Shown here one piece after another: positions 1 through 64,000 of a stretch of DNA of 64,000 nucleotides. The DNA is from Xanthostigma xanthostigma (Eukaryota > Arthropoda > Insecta > Raphidioptera > Raphidiidae). The notes beneath the pieces were generated by a model that made no database searches, had not been told where the DNA came from, and saw only the letters and a program-made list of their open reading frames with translations. The stretch spans positions 32,086,001 through 32,150,000 of the forward strand of contig OY754466.1 in the NCBI GenBank assembly GCA_963575645.1, read 5' to 3'. Positions within the stretch are counted from its first letter, which is position 1. Each line of letters begins with the position of its first letter. The translations under genes and the position numbers were made by a program.

Positions 1-20
1 ATTTGCACGCAATTGTCGTA

Positions 21-39
21 AAGCATGTAAAAACTGCTT
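21..39. other. Dyad aagca-N9-tgctt, repeated in nearly every monomer
   Basis: Monomer positions 21-25 and 35-39 are perfect 5-base inverted repeats around tgtaaaaac. B monomers (aaccatg) break the left arm, Z monomers (aaacatg) also alter it, and M/O monomers (aacagctt) alter the right arm. Shown here for the first monomer. The arms are short, so any cruciform would be weak; a bound protein dimer is an alternative reading. Confidence 0.6.
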
Positions 40-63
40 CTCTGCGTTAAAATAATGGTTAAT

Positions 64-76
64 ATGCAGTTTGCAT
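64..76. other. Dyad atgca-gtt-tgcat, repeated in most monomers
   Basis: Monomer positions 64-68 and 72-76 form a 5-base inverted repeat with a 3-base loop. It is broken in D (gcagtctgcat keeps partial pairing), f (gcacactgcat), P (aagcag) and the tttacatt kinds R, a, b and c. Shown for the first monomer. It sits in the middle of the interval where most fused monomers could have switched. Confidence 0.6.
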
Positions 77-308
77 TTTCTTATGAGAGAATGATCCAAA
101 CCTGAATGTTATAGTGAAAGTAGACTTACCTTTGTGAAATAAAACAATTTTGCCTTTAAGGACTTATTTGCACCTAATTGTCGTAAACCATGTAAAAACT
201 GCTTGTCTGCGTGAAAATGATAGTCAATATTCAGTTTGCATTTTCTTATGAGAGAATGATCCAAACCTGAATGTTATAGTGTAAATAGACTTACCCTCAT
301 GAAATAAA

Positions 309-318
309 GCAATTTTGC
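309..318. other. Dyad gcaa-tt-ttgc, repeated in most monomers
   Basis: Monomer positions 144-153 form a compact 10-base inverted repeat. A, c and similar kinds have aca for gca and lose one pair, C has atttcgcc, and S has gcaatattgc, which keeps the arms. Shown for the second monomer (start 166). Confidence 0.55.
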
Positions 319-2474
319 CTATAAGGACTCATTTGCACCTAATTGTCTTAAAGCATGTAAAAACTGCTTGTATGCGTTAAAATAATAGTTAATATGCAGT
401 TTGCATTTCCTTGTGAGAGAATGATCCAAACCTGAATGTTATAGTGTAAGTAAACTTACCTTTATGAAATCAAGCAATTTCGCCTATAAGGACTCATTTG
501 CACCTAATTGTCGTAAAGCATGTAAAAACTGCTTGTCTGCGTTAAAATAATGGTTAATATGCAGTCTGCATTTTCTTATGAGAGAATAATCCAAACCTGA
601 ATGTTATAGTGTAAATAGACTAACCTTCATGAAATAAAGCAATTTTGCCTATAAGGACCCATTTGCCCCTAATTGTCATAAAGCATGTAAAAACTGCTTG
701 TATGCGTTAAAATGATAGTAAATATGCAGTTTGCATTTTCTTATGAGAGAATGATCCAAACCTAAATGTTATAGTGTAAATAGACTAACCCTCATGAAAT
801 AAAGCAATTTTGCCTATAAGGACTCATTTGCACCTAATTGTCGTAAAGCATGTAAAAACTGCTTGTCTGCGTTAAAATAATGGTTAATATGCAGTTTGCA
901 TTTTCTTATGAGAGAATGATCCAAACCTGAATGTTATAGTCTAAATAGACTTACCTTCATGAAATAAAGCAATTTTGCCTATAAGGACTTATTTGCCCCT
1001 AATTGTCATAAAGCATGTAAAAACTGCTTGTATGCGTTAAAATAATGGTTAATATGCAGTTTGCATTTTCTTATGAGAGAATGATACAAACCTGAATGTT
1101 ATAGTGTAAATAGACTTACCCTCATGAAATAAAGCAATTTTGCCTATAAGGACTCATTATCCCCTAATTGTCATAAAGCATGTAAAAACTGCTTGTATGC
1201 GTTAAAATAATGGTTAATATGCAGATTGCATTTTCTTATGAGAGAATGATTCAAACCTGAATGTTATAGTGTAAATAGACTTACCCTCATGAAATAAAGC
1301 AATTTTGCCTATAAAGACTCATTTGCACCTAATTGTCGTAAAGCATGTAAAAACTGCTTGTCTGCGTTTAAATAATGGTTAATATGCAGTTTGCATTTTC
1401 TTATGACAGAAAGATCCAAACCTGAATTATATAGTGTAAATAGACTTACCCTTCATGAAGTAAAGAAATTTTGCCTATAAGGACTCATTTGCCCCTAATT
1501 GTCATAAAGCATGTAAAAACTGCTTGTATGCGTTAAAATAATGGTTAATATGCAGTTTGCATTTTCTTATGAGAGAATGATCCAAACCTGAATGTTATAG
1601 TGAAAATAGACTTACCTTTGTAAAATAAAGCAATTTTGCCTATAAGGACTCATTTGCACGCAATTGTCGTGAAGCATGTAAAAACTGCTTGTCTGCGTTA
1701 AAATAATGGTTAATATGCAGTTTGCATTTTCTTATGAGAGAAATCCAAACCTGAATGTTATAGTGTAAATAGACTAACTTTCATGAAATAAAGCAATTTT
1801 GCCTATAAGGACCCATTTGCCCCTAATTGTCATAAAGCATGTAAAAACTGCTTGTATGCGTTAAAATAATGGTTAATATGCTGTTTGCATTTTCTTATGA
1901 GAGAATGATCCAAACCTAAATGTTATAGTGAAAATAGACTAATCTTTGTAAAATACCGCAATTTTGCCTATAAGGACTCATTTGCACGCAATTGTCGTGA
2001 AGCATGTAAAAACTGCTTGTCTGCGTTAAAATAATGGTTAATATGCAGTTTACATTTTCTTATGAGAGAACGTTCCAAACCTGAATGTTATAGTGAAAAT
2101 AGACTAATCTTTGTAAAATACCGCAATTTTGCCTATAAGGACTCATTTGCACGCAATTGTCGTGAAGCATGTAAAAACTGCTTGTCTGCGTTAAAATAAT
2201 GGTTAATATGCAGTTTACATTTTCTTATGAGAGAATGATCCAAACCTGAATGTTATAGTGTAAATAGACTTACCTTCATGAAATAAAACAATTTTGCCTA
2301 TAAAGACTCATTTGCTTCTAATTGTCATAAAGCATGTAAAAACTGCTTGTCAGCGTTAAAAAAATGGTTAATATGCAGTTTGCATTTTCTTATGAGAGAA
2401 TGATCCAAACCTGAATGTTATAGTGTAAATAGACTTACCTTCATGAAATAAAGCAATTTTGCCTATAAGGACTC

Positions 2475-2639
2475 ATTTGCCCCTAATTGTCATAAAGCAT
2501 GTAAAAACTGCTTCTCTGCGTTAAAATAATGGTTAATATGCAGTTTGCATTTTCTTATGAGAGAATGATCCAAACCTGAATGTTATAGTGAAAGTAGACT
2601 TACCTTTGTGAAATAAAACAATTTTGCCTTTAAGGACTT
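2475..2639. repeat. Fused monomer e/A
   Basis: The head is e-like (tttgcccc, gtcataaagc) and the rest is A (cttctctgcg, gaaagtagac). It replaces the e, f, A series present in the sister unit H5, a net loss of two monomers. The exchange lies between monomer positions 19 and 40. Confidence 0.9.
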
Positions 2640-3628
2640 ATTTGCACCTAATTGTCGTAAACCATGTAAAAACTGCTTGTCTGCGTGAAAATGATAGTCA
2701 ATATTCAGTTTGCATTTTCTTATGAGAGAATGATCCAAACCTGAATGTATAGTGTAAATAGACTTACCCTCATGAAATAAAGCAATTTTGCCTATAAGGA
2801 CTCATTTGCACCTAATTGTCATAAAGCATGTAAAAACTGCTTGTATGCGTTAAAATAATAGTTAATATGCAGTTTGCATTTCCTTGTGAGAGAATGATCC
2901 AAACCTGAATGTTATAGTGTAAGTAAACTTACCTTTATGAAATCAAGCAATTTCGCCTATAAGGACTCATTTGCACCTAATTGTCGTAAAGCATGTAAAA
3001 ACTGCTTGTCTGCGTTAAAATAATGGTTAATATGCAGTCTGCATTTTCTTATGAGAGAATAATCCAAACCTGAATGTTATAGTGTAAATAGACTAACCTT
3101 CATGAAATAAAGCAATTTTGCCTATAAGGACCCATTTGCCCCTAATTGTCATAAAGCATGTAAAAACTGCTTGTATGCGTTAAAATGATAGTAAATATGC
3201 AGTTTGCATTTTCTTATGAGAGAATGATCCAAACCTAAATGTTATAGTGTAAATAGACTAACCCTCATGAAATAAAGCAATTTTGCCTATAAGGACTCAT
3301 TTGCACCTAATTGTCGTAAAGCATGTAAAAACTGCTTGTCTGCGTTAAAATAATGGTTAATATGCAGTTTGCATTTTCTTATGAGAGAATGATCCAAACC
3401 TGAATGTTATAGTCTAAATAGACTTACCTTCATGAAATAAAGCAATTTTGCCTATAAGGACTTATTTGCCCCTAATTGTCATAAAGCATGTAAAAACTGC
3501 TTGTATGCGTTAAAATAATGGTTAATATGCAGTTTGCATTTTCTTATGAGAGAATGATACAAACCTGAATGTTATAGTGTAAATAGACTTACCCTCATGA
3601 AATAAAGCAATTTTGCCTATAAGGACTT

Positions 3629-3792
3629 ATTATCCCTTAATTGTCATAAAGCATGTAAAAACTGCTTGTATGCGTTAAAATAATGGTTAATATGCAGTTT
3701 GCATTTTTATATGAGAGAATGATCCAAACCTGAATGTTATAGTGTAAATAGACTTACCTTCATGAAATAAAGCAATTTTGCCAAAAGGACTC
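3629..3792. repeat. Fused monomer H/M type (also at 13,529 and 19,960)
   Basis: The head is attatccctt without the H change gcagattgc, and the tail is M (tttttatatgag, ccaaaagg, one base short). The same form recurs at 13,529-13,692 and 19,960-20,123, always after G ending in ggactt and always in units whose B has the tgtatagtg deletion. It is therefore a shared derived junction that bypasses I to L. Confidence 0.88.
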
Positions 3793-5114
3793 ATTTGCAC
3801 CTAATTGTCATAAAGCATGTAAAAACTGCTTGTATGCGTTAAAATAATGGTCAATATGCAGTTTACATTTTCTTATGAGAGAATGATCCAAACCTGAATG
3901 TTATAGTGTAAATAGACTTACCCTCATGAAATAAAGCAATTTTGCTTATAAAGACTCATTTGCACCATATTGTCATAAAGCATGTAAAAACAGCTTGTGT
4001 GCGTTAAAATAATGGTTAATATGCAGTTTGCATTTTCTTATGAGAGAATGATCCAAACCTGAATTATATAGTGTAAATAGACTTACCTTCAGGAAATAAA
4101 GCAATTTTGCCTATAAGGACTTATTTGCCCCTAATTGTCATAAAGCATGTAAAAACTGCTTGTATGCGTTAAAATAATGGTTAATAAGCAGTTTGCATTT
4201 TCTTATGAGAGAATGATCCAAACCTGAATGTTATAGTGTAAATAGACTTACCTTTGTAAAATAAAGGAATTTTGCCTATAAGGACTCATTTGCCCGCAAT
4301 TGTCGTGAAGCATGTAAAAACTGCTTGTCTGCGTTTAAATAATGGTTAATATGCAGTTGGCATTTTCTTATTAGATAAAGATCCAAACCTGAATGTTATA
4401 GTGTAAATAGACTTACCTTTCATGAAATAAAGCAATTTTGCCTATAAGGACTCATTTGCCCCTAATTGTCATAAAGCATGTAAAAACTGCTTGTATGCGT
4501 TAAAATAATGGTCAATATGCAGTTTACATTTTCTTATGAGAGAATGATCCAAACCTGAATGTTATAGTGTAAATAGACTTACCCTTCATGAAATAAAGCA
4601 ATTTTGCCTATAAGGACTCATTTGCCCCTAATTGTCATAAAGCATGTAAAAACTGCTTGTATGCGTTAAAGTAATGGTTAATATGCAGTTTGCATTTTCT
4701 TATGAGAGAATGTTCCAAACCTGAATGTTATAGTGAAAATAGACTTACCTTTGTAAAATAAAGCAATTTTGCCTATAAGGACTCATTTGCACGCAATTGT
4801 CGTGAAGCATGTAAAAACTGCTTGTCTGCGTTAAAATAATGGTTAATATGCAGTTTGCATTTTCTTATGAGAGAATGATCCAAACCTGAATGTTATAGTG
4901 TAAATAGACTAACCTTCATGAAATAAAGCCATTTTGCCTATAAGGACCCATTTGCCCCTAATTGTCATAAAGCATGTAAAAACTGCTTGTATGCGTTAAA
5001 ATAATGGTTAATATGCAGTTTGCATTATCTTATGAGAGAATGATCCAAACCTGAATGTTATAGTGTAAATAGACTTACCCTCATGAAATAAAGCAATTTT
5101 GCCTATAAGGACTT

Positions 5115-5609
5115 ATTTGCACCTAATTGTCATAAAGCATGTAAAAACTGCATGTAAGCGTTAAAATGATAGTAAATATGCAGTTTGCATTTTCTTATGA
5201 GAGAATGATCCAAACGTAATTGTTATAGTGTAAATAGACTAACCCTCATGAAATAAAGCAATTTTGCCTATAAAGACTCATTTACACCTAATTGTCGTAA
5301 AGCATGTAAAAACTGCTTCTCTGCGTTAAAATAATTGTTAATATGCAGTTTGCATTTTCTTATGAGAGAACGATCAAAACCTGAATTTTATAGTGGAAAT
5401 ACACTTACCTTCATAAAATAAAGCAATTTTGCCTATAAGGACTTATTTGCTCCTAATTGTCAGAAAGCATGTAAAAACTGCTTGTATGCGTTAAAATAAT
5501 GGTTAATATGCAGTTTGCATTTTCTTATGAAAGAATGATCCAAACCTGAATGTTATAGTGTAAATAGACTTACCCTCATGAAATAAAGCAATTTTGCCTA
5601 TAAGGACTC
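5115..5609. repeat. Extra monomer trio g h i (also at 21,776, 31,014 and 52,958)
   Basis: g has actgcatgtaagcg and aaacgtaattg, h has atcaaaacc, gtggaaatacac and ttcataaaat, and i has cagaaagc with gaaagaatg. The trio sits before V in H2, H6 and H8 and before the i/W/V mosaic in H13, and is absent from the 32-mer H3, where S T U stand instead. The H2 copy of h has cttctctgcg, a mark otherwise private to A, whereas the H6 copy has gtctgcg. Confidence 0.9.
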
Positions 5610-7259
5610 ATTTGCACCTAATTGTCGTAAAGCATGTAAAAACTGCTTGTAAGGGATAAAATAATGGTTAATATGCAGTTTGCATTTTCTTATGAGAGAA
5701 TGATCCAAACCTGAATGTTATAGTCTAAATAGACTTACCTTAATGAAATAAAGCAATTTTGCCTATTCGGACTCATTTGCCCCTAATTGTCATAAAGCAT
5801 GTAAAAACTGCTTGTATGCGTTAAAATAATGGTTAATATGCAGTTTGCATGTTCTTATGAGAGAACGATCCAAACCTGAATGTTATAGTGAAAATAGACT
5901 TACCTTCATGAAATAAAGCAATTTTGCCTATAAGGACTCATTTGCCCCTAATTGTCATAAAGCATGTAAAAACTGCTTGTATGCGTTAAAATAATGTATA
6001 ATATGCAGTTTGCATTTTCATATGAGAGAATGATCCAAACCTGAATGTTATAGTGAAAATAGACTAACCTTTGTAAAATAAAGCAATTTTGCCTATAAGG
6101 ACTCATTATCCCCTAATTGTCATAAAGCATGTAAAAACTGCTTGTATGCGTTAAAATAATGGTTAATATGCAGTTTGCATTTTCTTATGTGAGAACGATC
6201 CAAACCTAAATGTTATAGTGAAAATAGACTAACCTTCATGAAATAAAGCAATTTTGCCTATAAGGACCCATTTGCTCCTAATTGTCATAAAACATGTAAA
6301 AACTGCTTGTATGCGTTAAAATAATTGTTAATATGCAGTTTGCATTTTCTTATGAGAGAACGATCCAAACCTGAATGTTATAGTGAAAATAGACTAACCT
6401 TTGTAAAATAACGCAATTTTGCCTATAAGGACTCATTTGCACGCAATTGTCGTGAAGCATGTAAAAACTGCTTGTCTGCGTTAAAATAATGGTTAATATG
6501 CAGTTTACATTTTCTTATGAGAGAATGATCCAAACCTGAATGTTATAGTGTAAATAGACTTACCTTCATGAAATAAAACAATTTTGCCTATAAAGACTCA
6601 TTTGCTTCTAATTGTCATAAAGCATGTAAAAACTGCTTGTCAGCGTTAAAAAAATGGTTAATATGCAGTTTGCATTTTCTTATGAGAGAATGATCCAAAC
6701 CTGAATGTTATAGTGTAAATAGACTTACCTTCATGAAATAAAGCAATTTTGCCTATAAGGACTCATTTGCCCCTAATTGTCATAAAGCATGTAAAAACTG
6801 CTTGTATGCGTTAAAATAATGTATAATATGCAGTTTGCATTTTCTTATGAGAGAATGATCCAAACCTATATGTTATAGTGAAAATAGACTTACCTTTGTA
6901 AAATAAAGCAATTTTGCCTATAAGGACTCATTATCCCTTAATTGTCATAAAGCATGTAAAAACTGCTTGTATGCGTTAAAATAATGGTTAATATGCACAC
7001 TGCATTTTCTTATGAGAGAATGATCCAAACCTGAATGTTATAGTGTAAATAGACTTACCTTTGTAAAATAAAGCAATTTTGCCTATAAGGACTCATTTGC
7101 ACGCAATTGTCGTAAAGCATGTAAAAACTGCTTCTCTGCGTTAAAATAATGGTTAATATGCAGTTTGCATTTTCTTATGAGAGAATGATCCAAACCTGAA
7201 TGTTATAGTGAAAGTAGACTTACCTTTGTGAAATAAAACAATTTTGCCTTTAAGGACTT

Positions 7260-10200
7260 ATTTGCACCTAATTGTCGTAAACCATGTAAAAACTGCTTGT
7301 CTGCGTGAAAATGATAGTCAATATTCAGTTTGCATTTTCTTATGAGAGAATGATCCAAACCTGAATGTTATAGTGTAAATAGACTTACCCTCATGAAATA
7401 AAGCAATTTTGCCTATAAGGACTCATTTGCACCTAATTGTCATAAAGCATGTAAAAACTGCTTGTATGCGTTAAAATAATAGTTAATATGCAGTTTGCAT
7501 TTCCTTGTGAGAGAATGATCCAAACCTGAATGTTATAGTGTAAGTAAACTTACCTTTATGAAATCAAGCAATTTCGCCTATAAGGACTCATTTGCACCTA
7601 ATTGTCGTAAAGCATGTAAAAACTGCTTGTCTGCGTTAAAATAATGGTTAATATGCAGTCTGCATTTTCTTATGAGAGAATAATCCAAACCTGAATGTTA
7701 TAGTGTAAATAGACTAACCTTCATGAAATAAAGCAATTTTGCCTATAAGGACCCATTTGCCCCTAATTGTCATAAAGCATGTAAAAACTGCTTGTATGCG
7801 TTAAAATGATAGTAAATATGCAGTTTGCATTTTCTTATGAGAGAATGATCCAAACCTAAATGTTATAGTGTAAATAGACTAACCCTCATGAAATAAAGCA
7901 ATTTTGCCTATAAGGACTCATTTGCACCCAATTGTCGTAAAGCATGTAAAAACTGCTTGTCTGCGTTAAAATAATGGTTAATATGCAGTTTGCATTTTCT
8001 TATGAGAGAATGATCTAAACCTGAATGTTATAGTCTAAATAGACTTACCTTCATGAAATAAAGCAATTTTGCCTATAAAGACCTATTTGCCCCTAATTGT
8101 CATAAAGCATGTAAAAACTGCTTGTATGCGTTAAAATAATGGTTAATATGCAGTTTGCATTTTCTTATGAGAGAATGATACAAACCTGAATGTTATAGTG
8201 TAAATAGACTTACCCTCATGAAATAAAGCAATTTTGCCTATAAGGACTCATTATCCCCTAATTGTCATAAAGCATGTAAAAACTGCTTGTATGCGTTAAA
8301 ATAATGGTTAATATGCAGATTGCATTTTCTTATGAAAGAATGATTCAAACCTGAATGTTATAGTGTAAATAGACTTACCCTCATGAAATAAAGCAATTTT
8401 GCCTATAAAGACTCATTTGCACCTAATTGTCGTAAAGCATGTAAAAACTGCTTGTCTGCGTTTAAATAATGGTTAATATGCAGTTTGCATTTTCTTATGA
8501 CAGAAAGATCCAAACCTGAATGTTATAGTGTAAATAGACTTACCCTTCATGAAATAAAGAAATTTTGCCTATAAGGACTCATTTGCCCCTAATTGTCATA
8601 AAGCATGTAAAAACTGCTTGTATGCGTTAAAATAATGGTTAATATGCAGTTTGCATTTTCTTATGAGAGAATGATCCAAACCTGAATGTTATAGTGAAAA
8701 TAGACTTACCTTTGTAAAATAAAGCAATTTTGCCTATAAGGACTCATTTGCACGCAATTGTCGTGAAGCATGTAAAAACTGCTTGTCTGCGTTTAAATAA
8801 TGGTTAATATGCAGTTTGCATTTTCTTATGACAGAAATATCCAAACCTGAATGTTATAGTGTAAATAGACTAACTTTCATGAAATAAAGCAATTTTGCCT
8901 ATAAGGACCCATTTGCCCCTAATTGTCATAAAGCATGTAAAAACTGCTTGTATGCGTTAAAATAATGGTTAATATGCTGTTTGCATTTTCTTATGAGAGA
9001 ATGATCCAAACCTAAATGTTATAGTGTAAATAGACTAACCCTCATGAAATAAAGCAATTTTGCTTATAAAGACTCATTTGCACCTAATTGTCATAAAGCA
9101 TGTAAAAACAGCTTGTATGCGTTAAAATAATGGTTAATATGCAGTTTGCATTTTTATATGAGAGAATGATCCAAACCTGAATGTTATAGTGTAAATAGAC
9201 TTACCCTTAATGAAATAAAGCAATTTTGCCAAAAGGACTCATTTGCACCTAATTGTCATAAAGCATGTAAAATATGCTTGTATGCGTTAAAATGATAGTA
9301 AATATGCAGTTTGCATTTTCTTATGAGAGAATGATCCAAACCTGAATGTTATAGTGTAAATAGACTTACCCTCATGAAATAAAGCAATTTTGCTTATAAA
9401 GACTCATTTGCACCTAATTGTCATAAAGCATGTAAAAACAGCTTGTATGCGTTAAAATAATGGTTAATATGCAGTTTGCATTTTCTTATGAGAGAATGAT
9501 CCAAACCTGAATGTTATAGTGTAAATAGACTTACCTTCAGGAAATAAAGCAATTTTGCCTATAAGGACTTATTTGCCCCTAATTGTCATAAAGCATGTAA
9601 AAACTGCTTGTATGCGTTAAAATAATGGTTAATAAGCAGTTTGCATTTTCTTATGAGAGAATGATCCAAACCTGAATGTTATAGTGTAAATAGACTTACC
9701 TTTGTAAAATAAATGAATTTTGCCTATAAGGACTCATTTGCCCGCAATTGTCGTGAAGCATGTAAAAACTGCTTGTCTGCGTTTAAATAATGGTTAATAT
9801 GCAGTTTGCATTTTCTTATGAGATAAAGATCCAAACCTGAATGTTATAGTGTAAATAGACTTACCTTTCATGAAATAAAGCAATTTTGCCTATAAGGACT
9901 CATTTGCCCCTAATTGTCATAAAGCATGTAAAAACTGCTTGTATGCGTTAAAATAATGGTCAATATGCAGTTTACATTTTCTTATGAGAGAATGATCCAA
10001 ACCTGAATGTATAGTGTAAATAGACTTACCTTCAGGAAATAAAGCAATTTTGCCTATAAGGACTTATTTGCCCCTAATTGTCATAAAGCATGTAAAAACT
10101 GCTTGTATGCGTTTAAATAATGGTTAATATGCAGTTTGCATTTTCTTATGAGATAAAGATCCAAACCTGAATGTTATAGTGTAAATAGACTTACCCTCAT

Positions 10201-15500: not shown

Positions 15501-16167
15501 AGGACTCATTTGCACGCAATTGTCGTGAAGCATGTAAAAACTGCTTGTCTGCGTTAAAATAATGGTTAATATGCAGTTTACATTTTCTTATGAGAGAATG
15601 ATCCAAACCTGAATGTTATAGTGTAAATAGACTTACCTTCATGAAATAAAACAATTTTGCCTATAAAGACTCATTTGCTTCTAATTGTCAAAAAGCATGT
15701 AAAAACTGCTTGTCAGCGTTAAAAAAATGGTTAATATGCAGTTTGCATTTTCTTATGAGAGAATGATCCAAACCTGAATGTTATAGTGTAAATAGACTTA
15801 CCTTCATGAAATAAAGCAATTTTGCCTATAAGGACTCATTTGCCCCTAATTGTCATAAAGCATGTAAAAACTGCTTGTATGCGTTAAAATAATGTATAAT
15901 ATGCAGTTTGCATTTTCTTATGAGAGAATGATCCAAACCTATATGTTATAGTGAAAATAGACTTACCTTTGTAAAATAAAGCAATTTTGCCTATAAGGAC
16001 TCATTATCCCTTAATTGTCATAAAGCATGTAAAAACAGCTTGTATGCGTTAAAATAATGGTTAATATGCACACTGCATTTTCTTATGAGAGAATGATCCA
16101 AACCTGAATGTTATAGTGAAAGTAGACTTACCTTTGTGAAATAAAACAATTTTGCCTTTAAGGACTT
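12540..16167. repeat. HOR unit H4, 22 monomers
   Basis: Order: B C D E F G, H/M-type fusion (13,529-13,692), N/R-like, O (gtgtgcg, gaattatatag), R, S T U V W X Y Z, c d e, and a fused f/A monomer (16,003-16,167). The one-base deletion in B (tgtatagtg) and the H/M fusion are shared with H2 and H6. I-L, P, Q, a and b of the 32-mer are missing. X has gccatttt. The unit is two bases short of 22 x 165. Confidence 0.92.
16003..16167. repeat. Fused monomer f/A
   Basis: The head is f (attatccctt, gcacactgc) and the tail is A (gaaagtagac, tttaaggactt). It removes exactly one monomer between e and B. The exchange lies between monomer positions 74 and 114. The aacagcttg in its head is otherwise typical of M and O. 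Confidence 0.9.
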
Positions 16168-23095: not shown

Positions 23096-23260
23096 ATTTG
23101 CACGCAATTGTCGTGAAGCATGTAAAAACTGCTTGTCTGCGTTAAAATAATGGTTAATATGCAGTTTACATTTTCTTATGAGAGAATGATCTAAACCTGA
23201 ATGTTATAGTCTAAATAGACTTACCTTCATGAAATAAAGCAATTTTGCCTATAAGGACCT
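23096..23260. repeat. Fused monomer a/F
   Basis: The head is a/c type (cgtgaagc, gtctgcg, tttacatt) and the tail is F (gatctaaacc, agtctaaat, ggacct). The exchange lies between monomer positions 74 and 95. It links Z directly to F-G and removes c, d, e, f, A and B-E, which is why no B landmark exists between 18,971 and 26,561. Confidence 0.9.
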
Positions 23261-53100: not shown

Positions 53101-54937
53101 GCAATTTTGCCTATAAAGACTCATTTACACCTAATTGTCGTAAAGCATGTAAAAACTGCTTGTCTGCGTTAAAATAATTGTTAATATGCAGTTTGCATTT
53201 TCTTATGAGAGAATGATCAAAACCTGAATGCTATAGTGGAAATACACTTACCTTCATAAAATAAAGCAATTTTGCCTATAAGGACTTATTTGCTCCTAAT
53301 TGTCAGAAAGCATGTAAAAACTGCTTGTATGCGTTAAAATAATGGTTAATATGCAGTTTGCATGTTCTTATGAGAGAACGATCCAAACCTGAATGTTATA
53401 GTGAAAATAGACTTACCTTAATGAAATAAAGCAATTTTGCCTATACGGACTCATTTGCCCCTAATTGTCATAAAGCATGTAAAAACTGCTTGTATGCGTT
53501 AAAATAATGGTTAATATGCAGTTTGCATGTTCTTATGAGAGAACGATCCAAACCTGAATGTTATAGTGAAAATAGACTTACCTTCATGAAATAAAGCAAT
53601 TTTGCCTATAAGGACTCATTTGCCCCTAATTGTCATAAAGCATGTAAAAACTGCTTGTATGCGTTAAAATAATGTATAATATGCAGTTTGCATTTTCTTA
53701 TGAGAGAATGATCCAAACCTGAATGTTATAGTGAAAATAGACTAACCTTTGTAAAATAAAGCAATTTTGCCTATAAGGACTCATTATCCCCTAATTGTCA
53801 TAAAGCATGTAAAAACTGCTTGTATGCGTTAAAATAATGGTTAATATGCAGTTTGCATTTTCTTATGTGAGAACGATCCAAACCTGAATGTTATAGTGAA
53901 AATAGACTAACCTTCATGAAATAAAGCAATTTTGCCTATAAGGACCCATTTGCTCCTAATTGTCATAAAACATGTAAAAACTGCTTGTATGCGTTAAAAT
54001 AATTGTTAATATGCAGTTTGCATTTTCTTATGAGAGAACGATCCAAACCTGAATGTTATAGTGAAAATAGACTAACCTTTGTAAAATAACGCAATTTTGC
54101 CTATAAGGACTCATTTGCACGCAATTGTCGTGAAGCATGTAAAAACTGCTTGTCTGCGTTAAAATAATGGTTAATATGCAGTTTACATTTTCTTATGAGA
54201 GAATGATCCAAACCTGAATGTTATAGTGTAAATAGACTTACCTTCATGAAATAAAACAATTTTGCCTATAAAGACTCATTTGCTTCTAATTGTCATAAAG
54301 CATGTAAAAACTGCTTGTCAGCGTTAAAAAAATGGTTAATATGCAGTTTGCATTTTCTTATGAGAGAATGATCCAAACCTGAATGTTATAGTGTAAATAG
54401 ACTTACCTTCATGAAATAAAGCAATTTTGCCTATAAGGACTCATTTGCCCCTAATTGTCATAAAGCATGTAAAAACTGCTTGTATGCGTTAAAATAATGT
54501 ATAATATGCAGTTTGCATTTTCTTATGAGAGAATGATCCAAACCTATATGTTATAGTGAAAATAGACTTACCTTTGTAAAATAAAGCAATTTTGCCTATA
54601 AGGACTCATTATCCCTTAATTGTCATAAAGCATGTAAAAACTGCTTGTATGCGTTAAAATAATGGTTAATATGCACACTGCATTTTCTTATGAGAGAATG
54701 ATCCAAACCTGAATGTTATAGTGTAAATAGACTTACCTTTGTAAAATAAAGCAATTTTGCCTATAAGGACTCATTTGCACGCAATTGTCGTAAAGCATGT
54801 AAAAACTGCTTCTCTGCGTTAAAATAATGGTTAATATGCAGTTTGCATTTTCTTATGAGAGAATGATCCAAACCTGAATGTTATAGTGAAAGTAGACTTA
54901 CCTTTGTGAAATAAAACAATTTTGCCTTTAAGGACTT
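50152..54937. repeat. HOR unit H13, 29 monomers
   Basis: Order: B C D E F G, H/M fusion (51,142-51,305), N, O, P, Q variant, S/Q-like (ttggcatt), R, J-like (gaatgttcc), K-like (gccatttt), L-like, T, g (52,958), h (53,123), an i/W/V mosaic (53,288-53,452), W X Y Z c d e f A. The front shares ggttaacatg with H8 and H11, while the middle from O to Z follows H2/H6. P ends in tatacgg and R has a private gcatatttgcc. Confidence 0.9.
53288..53452. repeat. Three-part mosaic monomer i/W/V
   Basis: The head is i (tgctcct, cagaaagc), the middle is W (gcatgttc, agaacgatcc, gaaaat) and the tail is V (ttaccttaatg, tatacgg). V itself is missing and an ordinary W follows. Two switches in one monomer suggest gene conversion or two successive exchanges rather than one crossover. 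Confidence 0.85.
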
Positions 54938-56751
54938 ATTTGCACCTAATTGTCGTAAACCATGTAAAAACTGCTTGTCTGCGTGAAAATGATAGTCAAT
55001 ATTCAGTTTGCATTTTCTTATGAGAGAATGATCCAAACCTGAATGTTATAGTGTAAATAGACTTACCCTCATGAAATAAAGCAATTTTGCCTATAAGGAC
55101 TCATTTGCACCTAATTGTCATAAAGCATGTAAAAACTGCTTGTATGCGTTAAAATAATAGTTAATATGCAGTTTGCATTTCCTTGTGAGAGAATGATCCA
55201 AACCTGAATGTTATAGTGTAAGTAAACTTACCTTTATGAAATCAAGCAATTTCGCCTATAAGGACTCATTTGCACCTAATTGTCGTAAAGCATGTAAAAA
55301 CTGCTTGTCTGCGTTAAAATAATGGTTAATATGCAGTCTGCATTTTCTTATGAGAGAATAATCCAAACCTGAATGTTATAGTGTAAATAGACTAACCTTC
55401 ATGAAATAAAGCAATTTTGCCTATAAGGACCCATTTGCCCCTAATTGTCATAAAGCATGTAAAAACTGCTTGTATGCGTTAAAATGATAGTAAATATGCA
55501 GTTTGCATTTTCTTATGAGAGAATGATCCAAACCTAAATGTTATAGTGTAAATAGACTAACCCTCATGAAATAAAGCAATTTTGCCTATAAGGACTCATT
55601 TGCACCCAATTGTCGTAAAGCATGTAAAAACTGCTTGTCTGCGTTAAAATAATGGTTAATATGCAGTTTGCATTTTCTTATGAGAGAATGATCCAAACCT
55701 GAATGTTATAGTCTAAATAGACTTACCTTCATGAAATAAAGCAATTTTGCCTATAAGGACCTATTTGCCCCTAATTGTCATAAAGCATGTAAAAACTGCT
55801 TGTATGCGTTAAAATAATGGTTAATATGCAGTTTGCATTTTCTTATGAGAGAATGATACAAACCTGAATGTTATAGTGTAAATAGACTTACCCTCATGAA
55901 ATAAAGCAATTTTGCCTATAAGGACTCATTATCCCCTAATTGTCATAAAGCATGTAAAAACTGCTTGTATGCGTTAAAATAATGGTTAATATGCAGATTG
56001 CATTTTCTTATGAGAGAATGATTCAAACCTGAATGTTATAGTGTAAATAGACTTACCCTCATGAAATAAAGCAATTTTGCCTATAAAGACTCATTTGCAC
56101 CTAATTGTCGTAAAGCATGTAAAAACTGCTTGTCTGCGTTTAAATAATGGTTAATATGCAGTTTGCATTTTCTTATGACAGAAAGATCCAAACCTGAATG
56201 TTATAGTGTAAATAGACTTACCCTTCATGAAATAAAGAAATTTTGCCTATAAGGACTCATTTGCCCCTAATTGTCATAAAGCATGTAAAAACTGCTTGTA
56301 TGCGTTAAAATAATGGTTAATATGCAGTTTGCATTTTCTTATGAGAGAATGATCCAAACCTGAATGTTATAGTGAAAATAGACTTACCTTTGTAAAATAA
56401 AGCAATTTTGCCTATAAGGACTCATTTGCACGCAATTGTCGTGAAGCATGTAAAAACTACTTGTCTGCGTTAAAATAATGGTTAATATGCAGTTTGCATT
56501 TTCTTATGAGAGAAATCCAAACCTGAATGTTATAGTGTAAATAGACTAACTTTCATGAAATAAAGCAATTTTGCCTATAAGGACCCATTTGCCCCTAATT
56601 GTCATAAAGCATGTAAAAACTGCTTGTATGCGTTAAAATAATGGTTAATATGCTGTTTGCATTTTCTTATGAGAGAATGATCCAAACCTAAATGTTATAG
56701 TGTAAATAGACTAACCCTCATGAAATAAAGCAATTTTGCTTATAAAGACTC

Positions 56752-57740
56752 ATTTGCACCTAATTGTCATAAAGCATGTAAAAACAGCTTGTATGCGTTA
56801 AAATAATGGTTAATATGCAGTTTGCATTTTTATATGAGAGAATGATCCAAACCTGAATGTTATAGTGTAAATAGACTTACCTTCATGAAATAAAGCAATT
56901 TTGCCAAAAGGACTCATTTGCACCTAATTGTCATAAAGCATGTAAAATATGCTTGTATGCGTTAAAATGATAGTAAATATGCAGTTGGCATTTTCTTATG
57001 AGAGAATGATCCAAACCTGAATGTTATAGTGTAAATAGACTTACCCTCATGAAATAAAGCAATTTTGCTTATAAAGACTCATTTGCACCTAATTGTCATA
57101 AAGCATGTAAAAACAGCTTGTATGCGTTAAAATAATGGTTAATATGCAGTTTGCATTTTCTTATGAGAGAATGATCCAAACCTGAATGTTATAGTGTAAA
57201 TAGACTTACCTTCAGGAAATAAAGCAATTTTGCCTATAAGGACTTATTTGCCCCTAATTGTCATAAAGCATGTAAAAACTGCTTGTATGCGTTAAAATAA
57301 TGGTTAATAAGCAGTTTGCATTTTCTTATGAGAGAATGATCCAAACCTGAATGTTATAGTGTAAATAGACTTACCTTTGTAAAATAAAGGAATTTTGCCT
57401 ATAAGGACTCATTTGCCCGCAATTGTCGTGAAGCATGTAAAAACTGCTTGTCTGCGTGAAAATGATAGTAAATATGCAGTTTGCTTTTTCTTATGAGAGA
57501 ATGATCCAAACCTGAATGTTATAGTGTAAATAGACTTACCCTCATGAAATAAAGCAATTTTGCCTATAAAGACTCATTTGCACCTAATTGTCGTAAAGCA
57601 TGTAAAAACTGCTTGTCTGCGTTTAAATAATGGTTAATATGCAGTTTGCATTTTCTTATGAGATAAAGATCCAAACCTAAATGTTATAGTGTAAATAGAC
57701 TAACCCTCATGAAATAAAGCAATTTTGCTTATAAAGACTC
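56752..57740. repeat. 989-bp tandem duplication M N O P Q S, copy 1
   Basis: Six monomers M N O P Q plus an S/L fusion occur directly before a second M N O P Q plus S/Q-like monomer. The fused last monomer (57,576-57,740) has an S head (gagataaagatcc) and an L tail (cctaaatg, aaccctc, gcttataaag), which recreates the junction into the next M. N in this copy has a private ttggcatt. Confidence 0.93.
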
Positions 57741-58729
57741 ATTTGCACCTAATTGTCATAAAGCATGTAAAAACAGCTTGTATGCGTTAAAATAATGGTT
57801 AATATGCAGTTTGCATTTTTATATGAGAGAATGATCCAAACCTGAATGTTATAGTGTAAATAGACTTACCTTCATGAAATAAAGCAATTTTGCCAAAAGG
57901 ACTCATTTGCACCTAATTGTCATAAAGCATGTAAAATATGCTTGTATGCGTTAAAATGATAGTAAATATGCAGTTTGCATTTTCTTATGAGAGAATGATC
58001 CAAACCTGAATGGTATAGTGTAAATAGACTTACCCTCATGAAATAAAGCAATTTTGCTTATAAAGACTCATTTGCACCTAATTGTCATAAAGCATGTAAA
58101 AACAGCTTGTATGCGTTAAAATAATGGTTAATATGCAGTTTGCATTTTCTTATGAGAGAATGATCCAAACCTGAATGTTATAGTGTAAATAGACTTACCT
58201 TCAGGAAATAAAGCAATTTTGCCTATAAGGACTTATTTGCCCCTAATTGTCATAAAGCATGTAAAAACTGCTTGTATGCGTTAAAATAATGGTTAATAAG
58301 CAGTTTGCATTTTCTTATGAGAGAATGATCCAAACCTGAATGTTATAGTGTAAATAGACTTACCTTTGTAAAATAAAGGAATTTTGCCTATAAGGACTCA
58401 TTTGCCCGCAATTGTCGTGAAGCATGTAAAAACTGCTTGTCTGCGTGAAAATGATAGTAAATATGCAGTTTGCTTTTTCTTATGAGAGAATGATCCAAAC
58501 CTGAATGTTATAGTGTAAATAGACTTACCCTCATGAAATAAAGCAATTTTGCCTATAAAGACTCATTTGCACCTAATTGTCGTAAAGCATGTAAAAACTG
58601 CTTGTCTGCGTTTAAATAATGGGTAATATGCAGTTTGCATTTTCTTATGAGATAAAGATCCAAACCTGAATGTTATAGTGTAAATAGACTTACCTTTCAT
58701 GAAATAAAGCAATTTTGCCTATAAGGACT
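57741..58729. repeat. 989-bp tandem duplication M N O P Q S, copy 2
   Basis: Second M N O P Q series, ending in an S/Q-like monomer with tacctttcatg and a private gggtaatatg, then R. N here has ggtatagtg with a taaatag tail, unlike copy 1, so the copies have each picked up changes. A further P Q pair follows after R (58,896-59,225), with P carrying aaactaaagg. Confidence 0.9.
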
Positions 58730-60215
58730 CATTTGCCCCTAATTGTCATAAAGCATGTAAAAACTGCTTGTATGCGTTAAAATAATGGTCAATATGCAGT
58801 TTACATTTTCTTATGAGAGAATGATCCAAACCTGAATGTTATAGTGTAAATAGACTTACCTTCAGGAAATAAAGCAATTTTGCCTATAAGGACTTATTTG
58901 CCCCTAATTGTCATAAAGCATGTAAAAACTGCTTGTATGCGTTAAAATAATGGTTAATAAGCAGTTTGCATTTTCTTATGAGAGAATGATCAAAACCTGA
59001 ATGTTATAGTGTAAATAGACTTACCTTTGTAAACTAAAGGAATTTTGCCTATAAGGACTCATTTGCCCGCAATTGTCGTGAAGCATGTAAAAACTGCTTG
59101 TCTGCGTGAAAATGATAGTAAATATGCAGTTTGCTTTTTCTTATGAGAGAATGATCCAAACCTGAATGTTATAGTGTAAATAGACTTACCCTCATGAAAT
59201 AAAGCAATTTTGCCTATAAAGACTCATTTGCACCTAATTGTCTTAAAGCATGTAAAAACTGCTTGTCTGCGTTTAAATAATGGTTAATATGCAGTTTGCA
59301 TTTTCTTATGAGATAAAGATCCAAACCTGAATGTTATAGTGTAAATAGACTTACCCTCATGAAATAAAGCAATATTGCCTATAAGGACTCATTTGCACCT
59401 ACTTGTCGTAAAGCATGTAAAAACTGCTTGTCTGCGTTTAAATAATGGTTAATATGCAGTTTGCATTTTCTTATGAGAGAATGATCCAAACCTAAATGTT
59501 ATAGTGTAAATAGACTTACCCTCATGAAATAAAGCAATTTTGCCTATAAGGACACATTTGCACCTACTTGTCGTAAAGCATGTAAAAACTGCTTGTATGC
59601 GTTAAAATAATGGTTAATATGCAGTTTGCATTTTCTTATGAGAGAATGATCCAAACCTGAATGTTATAGTGTAAATAGACTTACCCTCATGAAATAAAGC
59701 AATTTTGCCTATAAGGACTCATTTGCACCTAATTGTCGTAAAGCATGTAAAAACTGCTTGTAAGGGATAAAATAATGGTTAATATGCAGTTTGCATTTTC
59801 TTATGAGAGAATGATCCAAACCTGAATGTTATAGTCTAAATAGATTTACCTTAATGAAATAAAGCAATTTTGCCTATACGGACTCATTTGCCCCTAATTG
59901 TCATAAAGCATGTAAAAACTGCTTGTATGCGTTAAAATAATGGTTAATATGCAGTTTGCATGTTCTTATGAGAGAACGATCCAAACCTGAATGTTATAGT
60001 GAAAATAGACTTACCTTCATGAAATAAAGCAATTTTGCCTATAAGGACTCATTTGCCCCTAATTGTCATAAAGCATGTAAAAACTGCTTGTATGCGTTAA
60101 AATAATGTATAATATGCAGTTTGCATTTTCTTATGAGAGAATGATCCAAACCTGAATGGTATAGTGAAAATAGACTAACCTTTGTAAAATAAAGCAATTT
60201 TGCCTATAAGGACTC

Positions 60216-60545
60216 ATTATCCCCTAATTGTCATAAAGCATGTAAAAACTGCTTGTATGCGTTAAAATAATGATTAATATGCAGTTTGCATTTTCTTATG
60301 TGAGAACGATCCAAACCTGAATGTTATAGTGAAAATAGAGTAACCTTCATGAAATAAAGCAATTTTGCCTATAAGGACCCATTTGCTCCTAGTTGTCATA
60401 AAACATGTAAAAACTGCTTGTATGCGTTAAAATAATTGTTAATATGCAGTTTGCATTTTCTTATGAGAGAACGATCCAAACCTGAATGTTATAGTGAAAA
60501 TAGACTAATCTTTGTAAAATACCGCAATTTTGCCTATAAAGACTC
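60216..60545. repeat. 330-bp Y Z tandem duplication, copy 1
   Basis: The Y Z dimer has two private changes, gagtaacc in Y (60,339) and ctagttgtc in Z (about 60,390). Both recur exactly 330 bp further on and nowhere else in the window. Z in this copy ends in ataaagactc so that it leads into the second attatcccc head. Confidence 0.96.
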
Positions 60546-60875
60546 ATTATCCCCTAATTGTCATAAAGCATGTAAAAACTGCTTGTATGCGTTAAAATAA
60601 TGATTAATATGCAGTTTGCATTTTCTTATGTGAGAACGATCCAAACCTGAATGTTATAGTGAAAATAGAGTAACCTTCATGAAATAAAGCAATTTTGCCT
60701 ATAAGGACCCATTTGCTCCTAGTTGTCATAAAACATGTAAAAACTGCTTGTATGCGTTAAAATAATTGTTAATATGCAGTTTGCATTTTCTTATGAGAGA
60801 ACGATCCAAACCTGAATGTTATAGTGAAAATAGACTAATCTTTGTAAAATACCGCAATTTTGCCTATAAGGACTC
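60546..60875. repeat. 330-bp Y Z tandem duplication, copy 2
   Basis: Copy 2 carries the same private gagtaacc and ctagttgtc. Z ends in ataaggactc and leads into c at 60,876, as in the other units without a and b. The only difference I see from copy 1 is that terminal a/g. This is the clearest very recent expansion in the window and is exactly two monomers. Confidence 0.96.
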
Positions 60876-61700
60876 ATTTGCACGCAATTGTCGTGAAGCA
60901 TGTAAAAACTGCTTGTCTGCGTTAAAATAATGGTTAATATGCAGTTTACATTTTCTTATGAGAGAATGATCCAAACCTGAATGTTATAGTGTAAATAGAC
61001 TTACCTTCATGAAATAAAACAATTTTGCCTATAAAGACTCATTTGCTTCTAATTGTCATAAAGCATGTAAAAACTGCTTGTCAGCGTTAAAAAAATGGTT
61101 AATATGCAGTTTGCATTTTCTTATGAGAGAATGATCCAAACCTGAATGTTACAGTGTAAATAGACTTACCTTCATGAAATAAAGCAATTTTGCCTATAAG
61201 GACTCATTTGCCCCTAATTGTCATAAAGCATGTAAAAACTGCTTGTATGCGTTAAAATAATGTATAATATGCAGTTTGCATTTTCTTATGAGAGAATGAT
61301 CCAAACCTATATGTTATAGTGAAAATAGACTTACCTTTGTAAAATAAAGCAATTTTGCCTATAAGGACTCATTATCCCTTAATTGTCATAAATCATGTAA
61401 AAACTGCTTGTATGCGTTAAAATAATGGTTAATATGCACACTGCATTTTCTTATGAGAGAATGATCCAAACCTGAATGTTATAGTGTAAATAGACTTACC
61501 TTTGTAAAATAAAGCAATTTTGCCTATAAGGACTCATTTGCACGCAATTGTCGTAAAGCATGTAAAAACTGCTTCTCTGCGTTAAAATAATGGTTAATAT
61601 GCAGTTTGCATTTTCTTATGAGAGAATGATCCAAACCTGAATGTTATAGTGAAAGTAGACTTACCTTTGTGAAATAAAACAATTTTGCCTTTAAGGACTT

Positions 61701-64000
61701 ATTTGCACCTAATTGTCGTAAACCATGTAAAAACTGCTTGTCTGCGTGAAAATGATAGTCAATATTCAGTTTGCATTTTCTTATGAGAGAATGATCCAAA
61801 CCTGAATGTTATAGTGTAAATAGACTTACCCTCATGAAATAAAGCAATTTTGCCTATAAGGACTCATTTGCACCTAATTGTCATAAAGCATGTAAAAACT
61901 GCTTGTATGCGTTAAAATAATAGTTAATATGCAGTTTGCATTTCCTTGTGAGAGAATGATCCAAACCTGAATGTTATAGTGTAAGTAAACTTACCTTTAT
62001 GAAATCAAGCAATTTCGCCTATAAGGACTCATTTGCACCTAATTGTCGTAAAGCATGTAAAAACTGCTTGTCTGCGTTAAAATAATGGTTAATATGCAGT
62101 CTGCATTTTCTTATGAGAGAATAATCCAAACCTGAATGTTATAGTGTAAATAGACTAACCTTCATGAAATCAAGCAATTTTGCCTATAAGGACCCATTTG
62201 CCCCTAATTGTCATAAAGCATGTAAAAACTGCTTGTATGCGTTAAAATGATAGTAAATATGCAGTTTGCATTTTCTTATGAGAGAATGATCCAAACCTAA
62301 ATGTTATAGTGTAAATAGACTAACCCTCATGAAATAAAGCAATTTTGCCTATAAGGACTCATTTGCACCTAATTGTCGTAAAGCATGTAAAAACTGCTTG
62401 TCTGCGTTAAAATAATGGTTAATATGCAGTTTGCATTTTCTTATGAGAGAATGATCCAAACCTGAATGTTATAGTGTAAATAGACTTACCCTCATGAAAT
62501 AAAGCAATTTTGCCTATAAGGACCCATTTGCCCCTAATTGTCATAAAGCATGTAAAAACTGCTTGTATGCGTTAAAATAATGGTTAATATGCTGTTTGCA
62601 TTTTCTTATGAGAGAATGATCCAAACCTAAATGTTATAGTGTAAATAGACTTACCCTCATGAAATAAAGCAATTTTGCTTATAAAGACTCATTTGCACCT
62701 AATTGTCATAAAGCATGTAAAAACAGCTTGTATGCGTTAAAATAATGGTTAATATGCAGTTTGCATTTTTATATGAGAGAATGATCCAAACCTGAATGTT
62801 ATAGTGTAAATAGACTTACCTTCATGAAATAAAGCAATTTTGCCAAAAGGACTCATTTGCACCTAATTGTCATAAAGCATGTAAAATATGCTTGTATGCG
62901 TTAAAATGATAGTAAATATGCAGTTTGCATTTTCTTATGAGAGAATGATCCAAACCTGAATGTTATAGTGTAAATAGACTTACCCTCATAAAATAAAGCA
63001 ATTTTGCTTATAAAGACTCATTTGCACCTAATTGTCATAAAGCATGTAAAAACAGCTTGTGTGCGTTAAAATAATGGTTAATATGCAGTTTGCATTTTCT
63101 TATGAGAGAATGATCCAAACCTGAATGTTATAGTGTAAATAGACTTACCTTCAGGAAATAAAGCAATTTTGCCTATAAGGACTTATTTGCCCCTAATTGT
63201 CATAAAGCATGTAAAAACTGCTTGTATGCGTTAAAATAATGGTTAATAAGCAGTTTGCATTTTCTTATGAGAGAATGATCCAAACCTGAATGTTATAGTG
63301 TAAATAGACTTACCTTTGTAAAATAAAGGAATTTTGCCTATAAGGACTCATTTGCCCGCAATTGTCGTGAAGCATGTAAAAACTGCTTGTCTGCGTGAAA
63401 TTGATAGTAAATATGCAGTTTGCTTTTTCTTATGAGAGAATGATCCAAACCTGAATGTTATAGTGTAAATAGACTTACCCTCATGAAATAAAGCAATTTT
63501 GCCTATAAAGACTCATTTGCACCTAATTGTCGTAAAGCATGTAAAAACTGCTTGTCTGCGTTTAAATAATGGTTAATATGCAGTTTGCATTTTCTTATTA
63601 GATAAAGATCCAAACCTGAATGTTATAGTGTAAATAGACTTACCTTTCATGAAATAAAGCAATTTTGCCTATAAGGACTCATTTGCCCCTAATTGTCATA
63701 AAGCATGTAAAAACTGCTTGTATGCGTTAAAATAATGGTCAATATGCAGTTTACATTTTCTTATGAGAGAATGATCCAAACCTGAATGTTATAGTGTAAA
63801 TAGACTTACCCTTCATGAAATAAAGCAATTTTGCCTATAAGGACTCATTTGCCCCTAATTGTCATAAAGCATGTAAAAACTGCTTGTATGCGTTAAAATA
63901 ATGGTTAATATGCAGTTTGCATTTTCTTATGAGAGAATGTTCCAAACCTGAATGTTATAGTGAAAATAGACTTACCTTTGTAAAATAAAGCAATTTTGCC
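61701..64000. repeat. HOR unit H15, 14 monomers, cut by the window edge
   Basis: Order: B C D E, an F-headed monomer with an unlike tail (62,361-62,525), L (62,526), M N O P, Q variant (gtgaaattgatag), S/Q-like (ttagataaag), R (tacccttcatg), and a J-like monomer with gaatgttcc that runs off the end. G to K are missing: the F-headed monomer ends in ggaccc, which normally precedes L. From P onward it follows H2/H6/H13. Confidence 0.9.
62361..62525. repeat. Fused monomer F/K-like
   Basis: The head matches F (cacctaattgtcg, gtctgcg) but the tail lacks the F mark agtctaaat and ends taccctc and ggaccc. L follows. The join removes G through K. The ggaccc end is what K normally has before L; the taccctc part fits several kinds, so the donor is uncertain. 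Confidence 0.75.

What the first reader, a model, noticed from the sequence alone, without database searches (positions are those of the whole stretch)
1..64000. A 64-kb pure satellite array with a long ordered higher-order repeat of a 165-bp unit
About 35 monomer kinds follow each other in a fixed order across 15 units, so the array is not a random tandem repeat. The reference order has 32 monomers (5,280 bp). Long, many-kind HORs are best known from primate alpha satellite; here the monomer is a different, 165-bp sequence with no CENP-B box. The order and counts are read directly; the centromeric role is inferred.
Basis: partly seen in the sequence, partly recalled or inferred. Interest (0 to 1): 0.75.

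Follow-up and report, generated by a model that had tools for sequence, protein, structure and literature searches.

The report
Snakefly centromere-like ordered satellite array
This is a stretch of the megabase-long repeated DNA block in the middle of chromosome 3 of a snakefly, built from about 50 versions of a 165-letter repeat that recur in a shared order, as in human centromeres, and it is probably part of that insect's centromere region.

Summary
The higher-order repeat (HOR) is real. The 64 kb is pure, one-orientation 165-bp satellite: 387 whole monomers in 55 kinds, 99.6% identical within a kind, 92.2% between kinds, in an order far from random. The array is a modular mosaic: a shared core of 11 monomers with alternative tails.

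The genome is the snakefly Xanthostigma xanthostigma (28 scaffolds, all 13 chromosome lengths match the published table). The satellite (extrapolated 21-26 Mb, 3-4% of the genome) was found in one stretch per chromosome on 12 of 13 chromosomes; 37 probes of X found none. This window's HOR belongs to a 0.3-0.5-Mb domain inside a 2.7-3.2-Mb chromosome-3 array. A CenH3 (CENP-A-like) gene candidate and a marginal CENP-C match exist. A centromeric or pericentromeric role is likely but unproven. HOR satellites are widespread, so this is a new member of a known kind.

More unusual, outside the window: chromosome 1's array flips strand repeatedly at recurrent, identical junctions, resembling the macro-dyads that a 2026 paper says were documented only in Tribolium beetles.

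The parts
1..64000 (+). uninterrupted 165-bp satellite array, 388 monomers (last one partial), one orientation, no gap, no other sequence
1..2144 (+). partial HOR unit, 13 monomers (kinds IEJBCDARcKXdU; kind letters as printed)
2145..6434 (+). HOR unit, 26 monomers; holds rare monomer u
6435..11715 (+).
11716..15507 (+). HOR unit, 23 monomers
15508..18146 (+). HOR unit, 16 monomers; holds rare monomer v
18147..25735 (+). HOR unit, 46 monomers (longest); holds rare monomer w
25736..28374 (+). HOR unit, 16 monomers
28375..32333 (+). HOR unit, 24 monomers; holds rare monomers t and x
32334..36789 (+). HOR unit, 27 monomers; holds rare monomers y and z
36790..41410 (+). HOR unit, 28 monomers
41411..44049 (+). 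HOR unit, 16 monomers
44050..46522 (+). HOR unit, 15 monomers (shortest); holds rare monomer t
46523..49326 (+). HOR unit, 17 monomers
49327..54112 (+). HOR unit, 29 monomers; holds rare monomer 0
54113..60875 (+). HOR unit, 41 monomers; holds rare monomers 1 and 2
60876..63846 (+). HOR unit cut by the window edge, 18 whole monomers

Best explanation
The window lies inside the main centromeric/pericentromeric satellite block of chromosome 3 of the snakefly Xanthostigma xanthostigma. A 165-bp, nucleosome-sized monomer diversified into a few types shared between chromosomes. Groups of 15-46 monomers were then amplified together on this chromosome, giving a local HOR domain (dense at about 32.03-32.34 Mb, scattered copies to 32.54 Mb) that is reshuffled by in-register unequal exchange and deletion. 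By analogy with other HOR centromeres, such a recently homogenised domain is the likeliest platform for CenH3 nucleosomes and the kinetochore, with the flanking satellite as pericentric heterochromatin. Shown by calls: array, HOR, hybrid monomers, location, approximate domain limits, a CenH3-like gene. Inferred: CenH3 occupancy, heterochromatin state, and that this domain rather than another part of the block is active (homogeneity of the different domains was not compared).
For: Identity of genome: 28 contigs, 84.21-Mb longest, all 13 chromosome lengths and the 17.75-kb mitochondrion match PMC11871431. HOR. Exchange: for 8 of 9 testable rare monomers (two of the 8 are copies of one kind, t) the parent pair predicted by the neighbours ties for best of all pairs, only 0.05-0.61% of pairs being as good. 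Domain: the window's first 330 bp has 40 scored places out of 834 candidates (19 at full score, 21 one step lower, itself included), all on C3 between 32.045 and 32.540 Mb. In ten 10-kb loci of C3 only 3-28 of 59-60 monomers match a window kind within 3 differences, against 50 of 60 at 32.03 Mb and 153 of 160 in eight 3.3-kb loci at 32.16-32.34 Mb (those eight were picked by the window query). Location: all 255 places in the six completely listed pattern searches fall in one stretch on each of 11 chromosomes, and C5 was found by probes (2 of 30). Machinery: a 125-aa divergent H3 at C2:24266218 matches H3/CENP-A chimeras best and without gaps through loop 1; CENP-C_C match at C1:27322174.
Against: No CenH3 mapping exists. 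X (C13) gave no satellite in 37 probes (10 of 400 bp, 19 of 300 bp, 8 of 50 bp) and no hit in the six complete listings, so not every chromosome is shown to have it. The CENP-C match is marginal (29.4 bits, cut-off 29), and the same profile also rang below its cut-off in 4 of 14 control genomes. The CenH3 call rests on a lead of two orders of magnitude over ordinary H3 chains; plain CENP-A chains are not among the 60 rows shown of 176. At 32.50 Mb, inside the range of the 330-bp hits, only 14 of 59 monomers match window kinds, so the domain is patchy there. There is no CENP-B box, and the consensus monomer is poorer, not richer, in short dyads than shuffles (2 against 6.5 for 5-bp arms). Localised centromeres in snakeflies were not confirmed in a paper here; only in a related order (Neuroptera, Sisyra nigra; PMC12734326, passages).
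Confidence: 0.7

Rival explanations
1. The satellite is a pericentromeric or interstitial heterochromatin block (knob) with HOR structure, and the kinetochore forms on other DNA beside or inside it (for example a small CenH3 domain or a transposon island).
For: No CenH3 data. X lacks a detectable array yet must segregate. C1 has satellite-free sequence at 40.50 Mb between satellite hits. Drosophila melanogaster is an example of retrotransposon-rich centromeres flanked by simple repeats (PMC11917152 passages).
Against: One stretch on each of 12 chromosomes, at 0.28-0.66 of the chromosome length (positions), is what a centromere would give; knobs are usually variable in number and place (the last point is general knowledge).
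Confidence: 0.24
2. The modular variation in unit length is partly an assembly artefact (mis-joined, collapsed or switched haplotypes) of a near-identical array assembled from 12-20-kb HiFi fragments.
For: Exact repeats of up to 2767 bp exist in the window; copies of a kind mostly differ by 0-1 base; the assembly is not fully phased and has 58 gaps, whose places I do not know (PMC11871431).
Against: The longest exact repeat is far shorter than the sheared fragment size; QV 66.1 is reported; no N in the window; rare monomers have the parents their neighbours predict, which random assembly error would not give. Errors could alter the number and length of units, not create the order.
Confidence: 0.06
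3. There is no higher-order structure; it is an ordinary satellite with random variants.
For: None found.
Against: Entropy and word tests against 1000 shuffles.
Confidence: 0

Closest known systems
Primate alpha satellite HORs
   Same: Nucleosome-sized monomer (165 against about 171 bp), long multi-monomer HORs of which copies are nearly identical, a HOR domain so far seen on one chromosome inside a multi-Mb block; the human Y HOR is a 34-mer (PMC8122249 passages)
   Different: No CENP-B box; monomers of different kinds are 92% alike (about 70% in human HORs); units vary from 15 to 46 monomers side by side; an insect
HOR satellite domains of the Drosophila ananassae subgroup (PMC11917152, abstract and passages)
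   Same: Insect, up to 2-Mb arrays with HOR structure, putative centromeric place
   Different: Several families with 99-411-bp monomers; another order (Diptera)
Macro-dyad satellite arrays of Tribolium (PMC13081366: abstract, section 7 part 1, Discussion part 1, other passages)
   Same: On chromosome 1: kb-scale strand flips with recurrent identical inversion sites, and larger mirrored blocks
   Different: One satellite family rather than two intermixed ones as far as sampled; not present in this window; 131 of 135 exact junction copies are on chromosome 1
TfSat01, major satellite of Tribolium freemani, derived from a 166-bp segment (passages of PMC13081366)
   Same: Almost the same monomer length
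   Different: Sequence not in hand, no alignment made; length alone is no evidence of kinship

Membership tests
HOR-organised satellite DNA | multimer copies much more alike than the monomers within a multimer, in repeated order | tested here: met
   99.6% within kinds against 92.2% between kinds; order tests
HOR-organised satellite DNA | one canonical unit length | tested here: not met
   15-46 monomers; a modular set of related units. Variant unit lengths also occur in known HOR arrays (recalled), so I do not treat this as excluding membership
Primate alpha satellite | CENP-B box (core NTTCGNNNNANNCGGGN; motif recalled) | tested here: not met
   0 matches in 64 kb
Primate alpha satellite | sequence similarity to the 171-bp monomer | not tested
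   no alpha satellite sequence was at hand; the host is an insect
Centromeric satellite of a monocentric species | one block on every chromosome | tested here: inconclusive
   12 of 13; X not found in 37 probes
Centromeric satellite of a monocentric species | CenH3 nucleosomes on the array | not testable with these tools
   needs CUT&RUN/ChIP or immuno-FISH
Centromeric satellite of a monocentric species | genome encodes CenH3 and CENP-C | tested here: inconclusive
   good CenH3 candidate C2:24266218-24266553; CENP-C_C match only just over its cut-off, 29.4 against 29 bits
CenH3 (the C2 gene) | histone fold with a loop 1 longer than in H3 (CATD-like) and a divergent tail | tested here: met
   gapless 101-residue alignment to H3/CENP-A chimeras 7by0/7bxt (2.3e-26, 2.5e-26); canonical H3 chains follow from 2.2e-24, their matched stretches about two residues shorter than the query's
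Tribolium-type macro-dyad arrays | array-level strand inversion at conserved inversion sites | tested here: met
   on chromosome 1, not in the window: 88 and 47 exact copies of two junction words, 84 and 47 of them on C1; window in one orientation
Tribolium-type macro-dyad arrays | short (<10 bp) dyads within the monomer | tested here: not met
   no enrichment: 2 five-bp-arm dyads in the consensus against 6.5 in shuffles; 982 of 1206 sampled monomers (0.81) keep ATGCANNNTGCAT, as column conservation alone predicts (0.82)

The most novel reading that the evidence does not exclude
The snakefly satellite is an independent, second insect lineage with macro-dyad centromere-type architecture: chromosome 1's block is built from inverted compound units amplified together with one pair of recurrent inversion junctions and then mirrored at 50-kb scale or larger, while chromosome 3 uses long direct HORs of the same monomer. 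If CenH3 sits on both, one species would allow a direct test of whether inversion symmetry matters for centromere identity.
Probability: 0.25. Interest if true: 0.7.

Novelty: new member of a known kind. Interest (0 to 1): 0.45.

Why it matters
It would be the first described candidate centromere satellite for the order Raphidioptera, as far as term searches of the held open-access library show (most subscription papers and bioRxiv preprints are not held). It shows that very long, many-kind HORs arise in an insect from a monomer without a CENP-B box. Because chromosome 1 (inverted compound units) and chromosome 3 (long direct HORs at this place) use the same monomer in different architectures, the species offers a natural comparison for what array order and symmetry do for centromeres.

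Tried and rejected
Anchor-regex segmentation missed monomers and was replaced by wrap-around alignment. A first guess that the host was a holocentric hemipteran was dropped when the assembly statistics matched a snakefly. A general two-parent hybrid test was not discriminating (16 of 45 common kinds also fit two other kinds with 0-1 mismatch); the neighbour-predicted test replaced it. Short-dyad enrichment of the monomer: not found. The junction word used matched ordinary monomers and was discarded; stricter words were used. One search translated the mitochondrial locus in a frame full of stops and was not used; one search gave the readings. One search ended with a script error after the results used here; the missing item was redone. 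Abundance is an extrapolation from the share of sampled monomers holding a 34-mer (0.42 with, 0.35 without the window). A search for Raphidioptera with holocentric gave no statement on snakefly centromeres in the passages seen (one of its four papers).
Full report
What was checked. Tandem Repeats Finder reports one row for the window: period 165, 387.9 copies, 92% matches, bases 1-64000. Wrap-around alignment to the consensus cut it into 388 monomers (the last one partial), 340 of them exactly 165 bp, on average 95.3% identical to the consensus. Pairwise differences among the 387 whole monomers are two-peaked: 1545 pairs differ by 0-1 base, few (226 and 216) by 2 or 3, and the main peak lies around 10-15. 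Average-linkage clustering at 3 differences gives 55 kinds; within-kind identity is 99.6% (1841 pairs, 1015 identical), between-kind 92.2%. No reverse-strand 13-mer of the consensus occurs in the window.

Order. Written as letters, the window repeats the block FGHMIEJBCDA, or a close variant, in unit after unit, followed by one of a few tails (RcKXdU; RkKlaWSTOe...QLN; Yop...ZVQLN and others). Unit lengths run from 15 to 46 monomers and only one (6435-11715, 5281 bp) is the 32-mer. Conditional entropy is 0.46 bits against a shuffle mean of 2.96 (1000 shuffles, lowest 2.82); 166 of 377 eleven-kind words recur, none in any shuffle. So the HOR is real, but it is a mosaic of related units rather than one repeated 32-mer.

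How the units change. Eleven monomers belong to ten rare kinds (one or two copies). If they arose by in-register unequal exchange, the left part should come from a kind that elsewhere follows the left neighbour, and the right part from a kind that elsewhere precedes the right neighbour. Nine of the 11 can be tested (the adjacent pair y-z cannot, each being the other's neighbour). In 8 of 9, two of which are copies of the same kind t, the predicted parent pair ties for the best of all pairs, with 0-2 mismatches; in one (kind 0) it is worse than the best, 4 against 2 mismatches. A looser two-parent test without neighbours did not discriminate.

Which organism. The window is bases 32086001-32150000 of contig C3 in a genome of 623,323,696 bases and 28 contigs. 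The lengths of C1-C13 and a 17,745-base contig with insect-type mitochondrial genes match the published table of Xanthostigma xanthostigma, irXanXant1.1: 28 scaffolds, 13 chromosomes from 84.21 to 18.36 Mb, 17.75-kb mitochondrion (PMC11871431, parts 1 and 2 of 4 read and a term search of the main text). That main text has no occurrence of satellite, centromer, repeat or repetitive. C13 is the X.

Where the satellite lies. A 34-mer of the satellite occurs 53,673 times, 28,503 on + and 25,170 on -; extrapolated, 21-26 Mb or 3.4-4.1% of the genome. Exact patterns with complete listings gave 255 places (2, 10, 51, 57, 88 and 47), and all fall in one stretch on each of 11 chromosomes: C1 39.5-43.3 Mb, C2 29.1-31.3, C3 30.9-33.6, C4 26.2-27.4, C6 25.8-27.5, C7 33.4-33.5, C8 29.1-31.0, C9 26.6-27.5, C10 18.4-19.7, C11 10.0-10.9, C12 14.4 (a single hit). 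These patterns sample a small part of the monomers, so small arrays elsewhere are not excluded, and continuity of the stretches was checked only on C3. Two listings were truncated at 100 places, all shown on C1. C5 was found by probes at 15.0 and 16.2 Mb (2 of 30 probes). X gave 0 of 37 probes (10 of 400 bp, 19 of 300 bp, 8 of 50 bp); the widest unprobed gap is 0.8 Mb, so a large X array is unlikely and a smaller one cannot be excluded. On C3, probes at 30.00, 30.60, 33.80 and 34.30 Mb are not satellite, while 30.947 and 33.64 Mb are, and all 11 loci of 10 kb between 31.0 and 33.5 Mb are, so the block is about 2.7-3.2 Mb and the window lies near its middle. Two unplaced scaffolds also begin with it (C15, C25).

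Domain structure on C3. The window's first 330 bp has 40 scored places out of 834 candidates, 19 at full score and 21 one step lower (all shown as 100%), all on C3 between 32.045 and 32.540 Mb. Assigning monomers of other loci to window kinds (3 differences or fewer) gives 50 of 60 at 32.03 Mb and 153 of 160 in eight 3.3-kb loci between 32.16 and 32.34 Mb, which were picked by that 330-bp query. It gives only 3-28 of 59-60 in the other ten 10-kb C3 loci, including 14 of 59 at 32.50 Mb, and 4 of 8 in a 1.5-kb locus at 33.09 Mb. On other chromosomes it gives 5 of 59 and 8 of 52 on C1 and 10 of 41 over C2, C8, C9, C10 and C12; C5 gave one whole monomer, unmatched; C4, C6, C7 and C11 were not sampled. 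Some flanking loci (for example 32.55 Mb) keep a related partial order. The strand alternates in large blocks: minus in most of 30.95-31.76 Mb (one exact hit on plus at 31.61), plus 31.78-32.63, minus 32.71-33.12, plus 33.50-33.64.

Chromosome 1 differs. A fetched 10-kb edge locus shows a sharp start of the satellite at 39,505,914 and a strand flip 8.7 kb further in. A 9.5-kb locus at 41.14 Mb has three flips. Compared by eye on the printed sequences, the forward-to-reverse junction is the same in both loci, in opposite orientation and with one base different in a 50-base core, and the reverse-to-forward junction occurs twice in the second locus. Exact 18- and 22-base junction words occur 88 times (84 on C1, 2 on C4, 2 on C6) and 47 times (all on C1). 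Within 39.51-39.99 Mb, 43 and 38 of them alternate at 64 of 80 neighbours (shuffle mean 40, 0 of 5000 as high), as true flips must if few are missed; the 32 reverse-strand segments so bounded have a median of 2.1 kb. Three blocks at 41.14, 41.46 and 41.61 Mb carry the same junction spacings, exactly or within about 330 bases, the first as a mirror image of the other two. As single-stranded DNA the junction folds as a long hairpin, as any such inverted repeat must. This is like the macro-dyads of Tribolium, which PMC13081366 says were documented only in that genus (passage); a search for macro-dyad with satellite found only that paper and one that cites it in its reference list. Assembly error has not been excluded for the mirrored blocks.

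Centromere machinery. The histone profile finds canonical histone clusters on C11 and C12, a two-part match on C4 and a divergent H3 in one open frame on C2. Its 125-residue reading aligns without gaps over 101 residues to H3/CENP-A chimeras (7by0, 2.3e-26; 7bxt, 2.5e-26), ahead of the H3 chains (from 2.2e-24), whose matched stretches are about two residues shorter; plain CENP-A chains are not among the 60 rows shown of 176. A CENP-C C-terminal profile match lies just above its cut-off (29.4 against 29 bits); the profile also rang in 4 of 14 control genomes, in none above the cut-off. The genome therefore appears to encode the usual kinetochore base; that snakeflies are monocentric was not confirmed in a paper here (localised centromeres are stated for a neuropteran in PMC12734326, passages).

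Reading. The best-supported explanation is the major centromeric/pericentromeric satellite, with this window inside a local HOR domain kept alike by unequal exchange. The array, order, exchange and location are shown; CenH3 binding is inferred. No CENP-B box and no enrichment of short dyads in the monomer argue against two proposed sequence-based recruiters. HORs are common in nature (76 of 171 species with Sanger data), so the window itself is a new member of a known kind. The length and modularity of its units, and above all the chromosome-1 architecture, raise the interest.

Noticed in passing
Scaffold ends of C1-C13 (L032-L041, L056-L071; 500 bases each): 10 of 13 scaffold starts and 6 of 13 scaffold ends consist of 21-24-bp (or 42-43-bp, once called as 107 bp) tandem repeats such as GGGAAAAAACGGGCCAAAAAA; in all 16 the A/G-rich strand runs toward the 3' end, and none of the 26 end stretches holds TTAGGTTAGG. 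A review says TTAGG was not evidenced in Raphidioptera and no alternative motif was detected (PMC9693754, one passage): candidate unconventional telomere or subtelomere repeats.
   Followed up: partly
G000 C1:39.51-43.30 Mb (L016, L115): Satellite stretch with alternating strand segments at two recurrent junctions and mirrored compound blocks; a satellite-free 10 kb at 40.50 Mb.
   Followed up: partly
G000 C11:10529670-10762807: Exact satellite hits repeat at an offset of 147,363 bp, suggesting a duplication of about 147 kb inside the array.
   Followed up: no
G000 C2:24266218-24266553 (L052): CenH3 candidate in one open frame, 125 aa.
   Followed up: partly
G000 C6:1195571-1196020 and C2:16906869-16907126: Partial COX1 matches in nuclear chromosomes, with in-frame stop codons by the standard code: likely nuclear copies of mitochondrial DNA.
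   Followed up: no
G000 C11:4-51159, 6.79-8.19 Mb and C12:16.03-16.20 Mb: Large histone gene clusters, one starting at the very first bases of scaffold C11.
   Followed up: no
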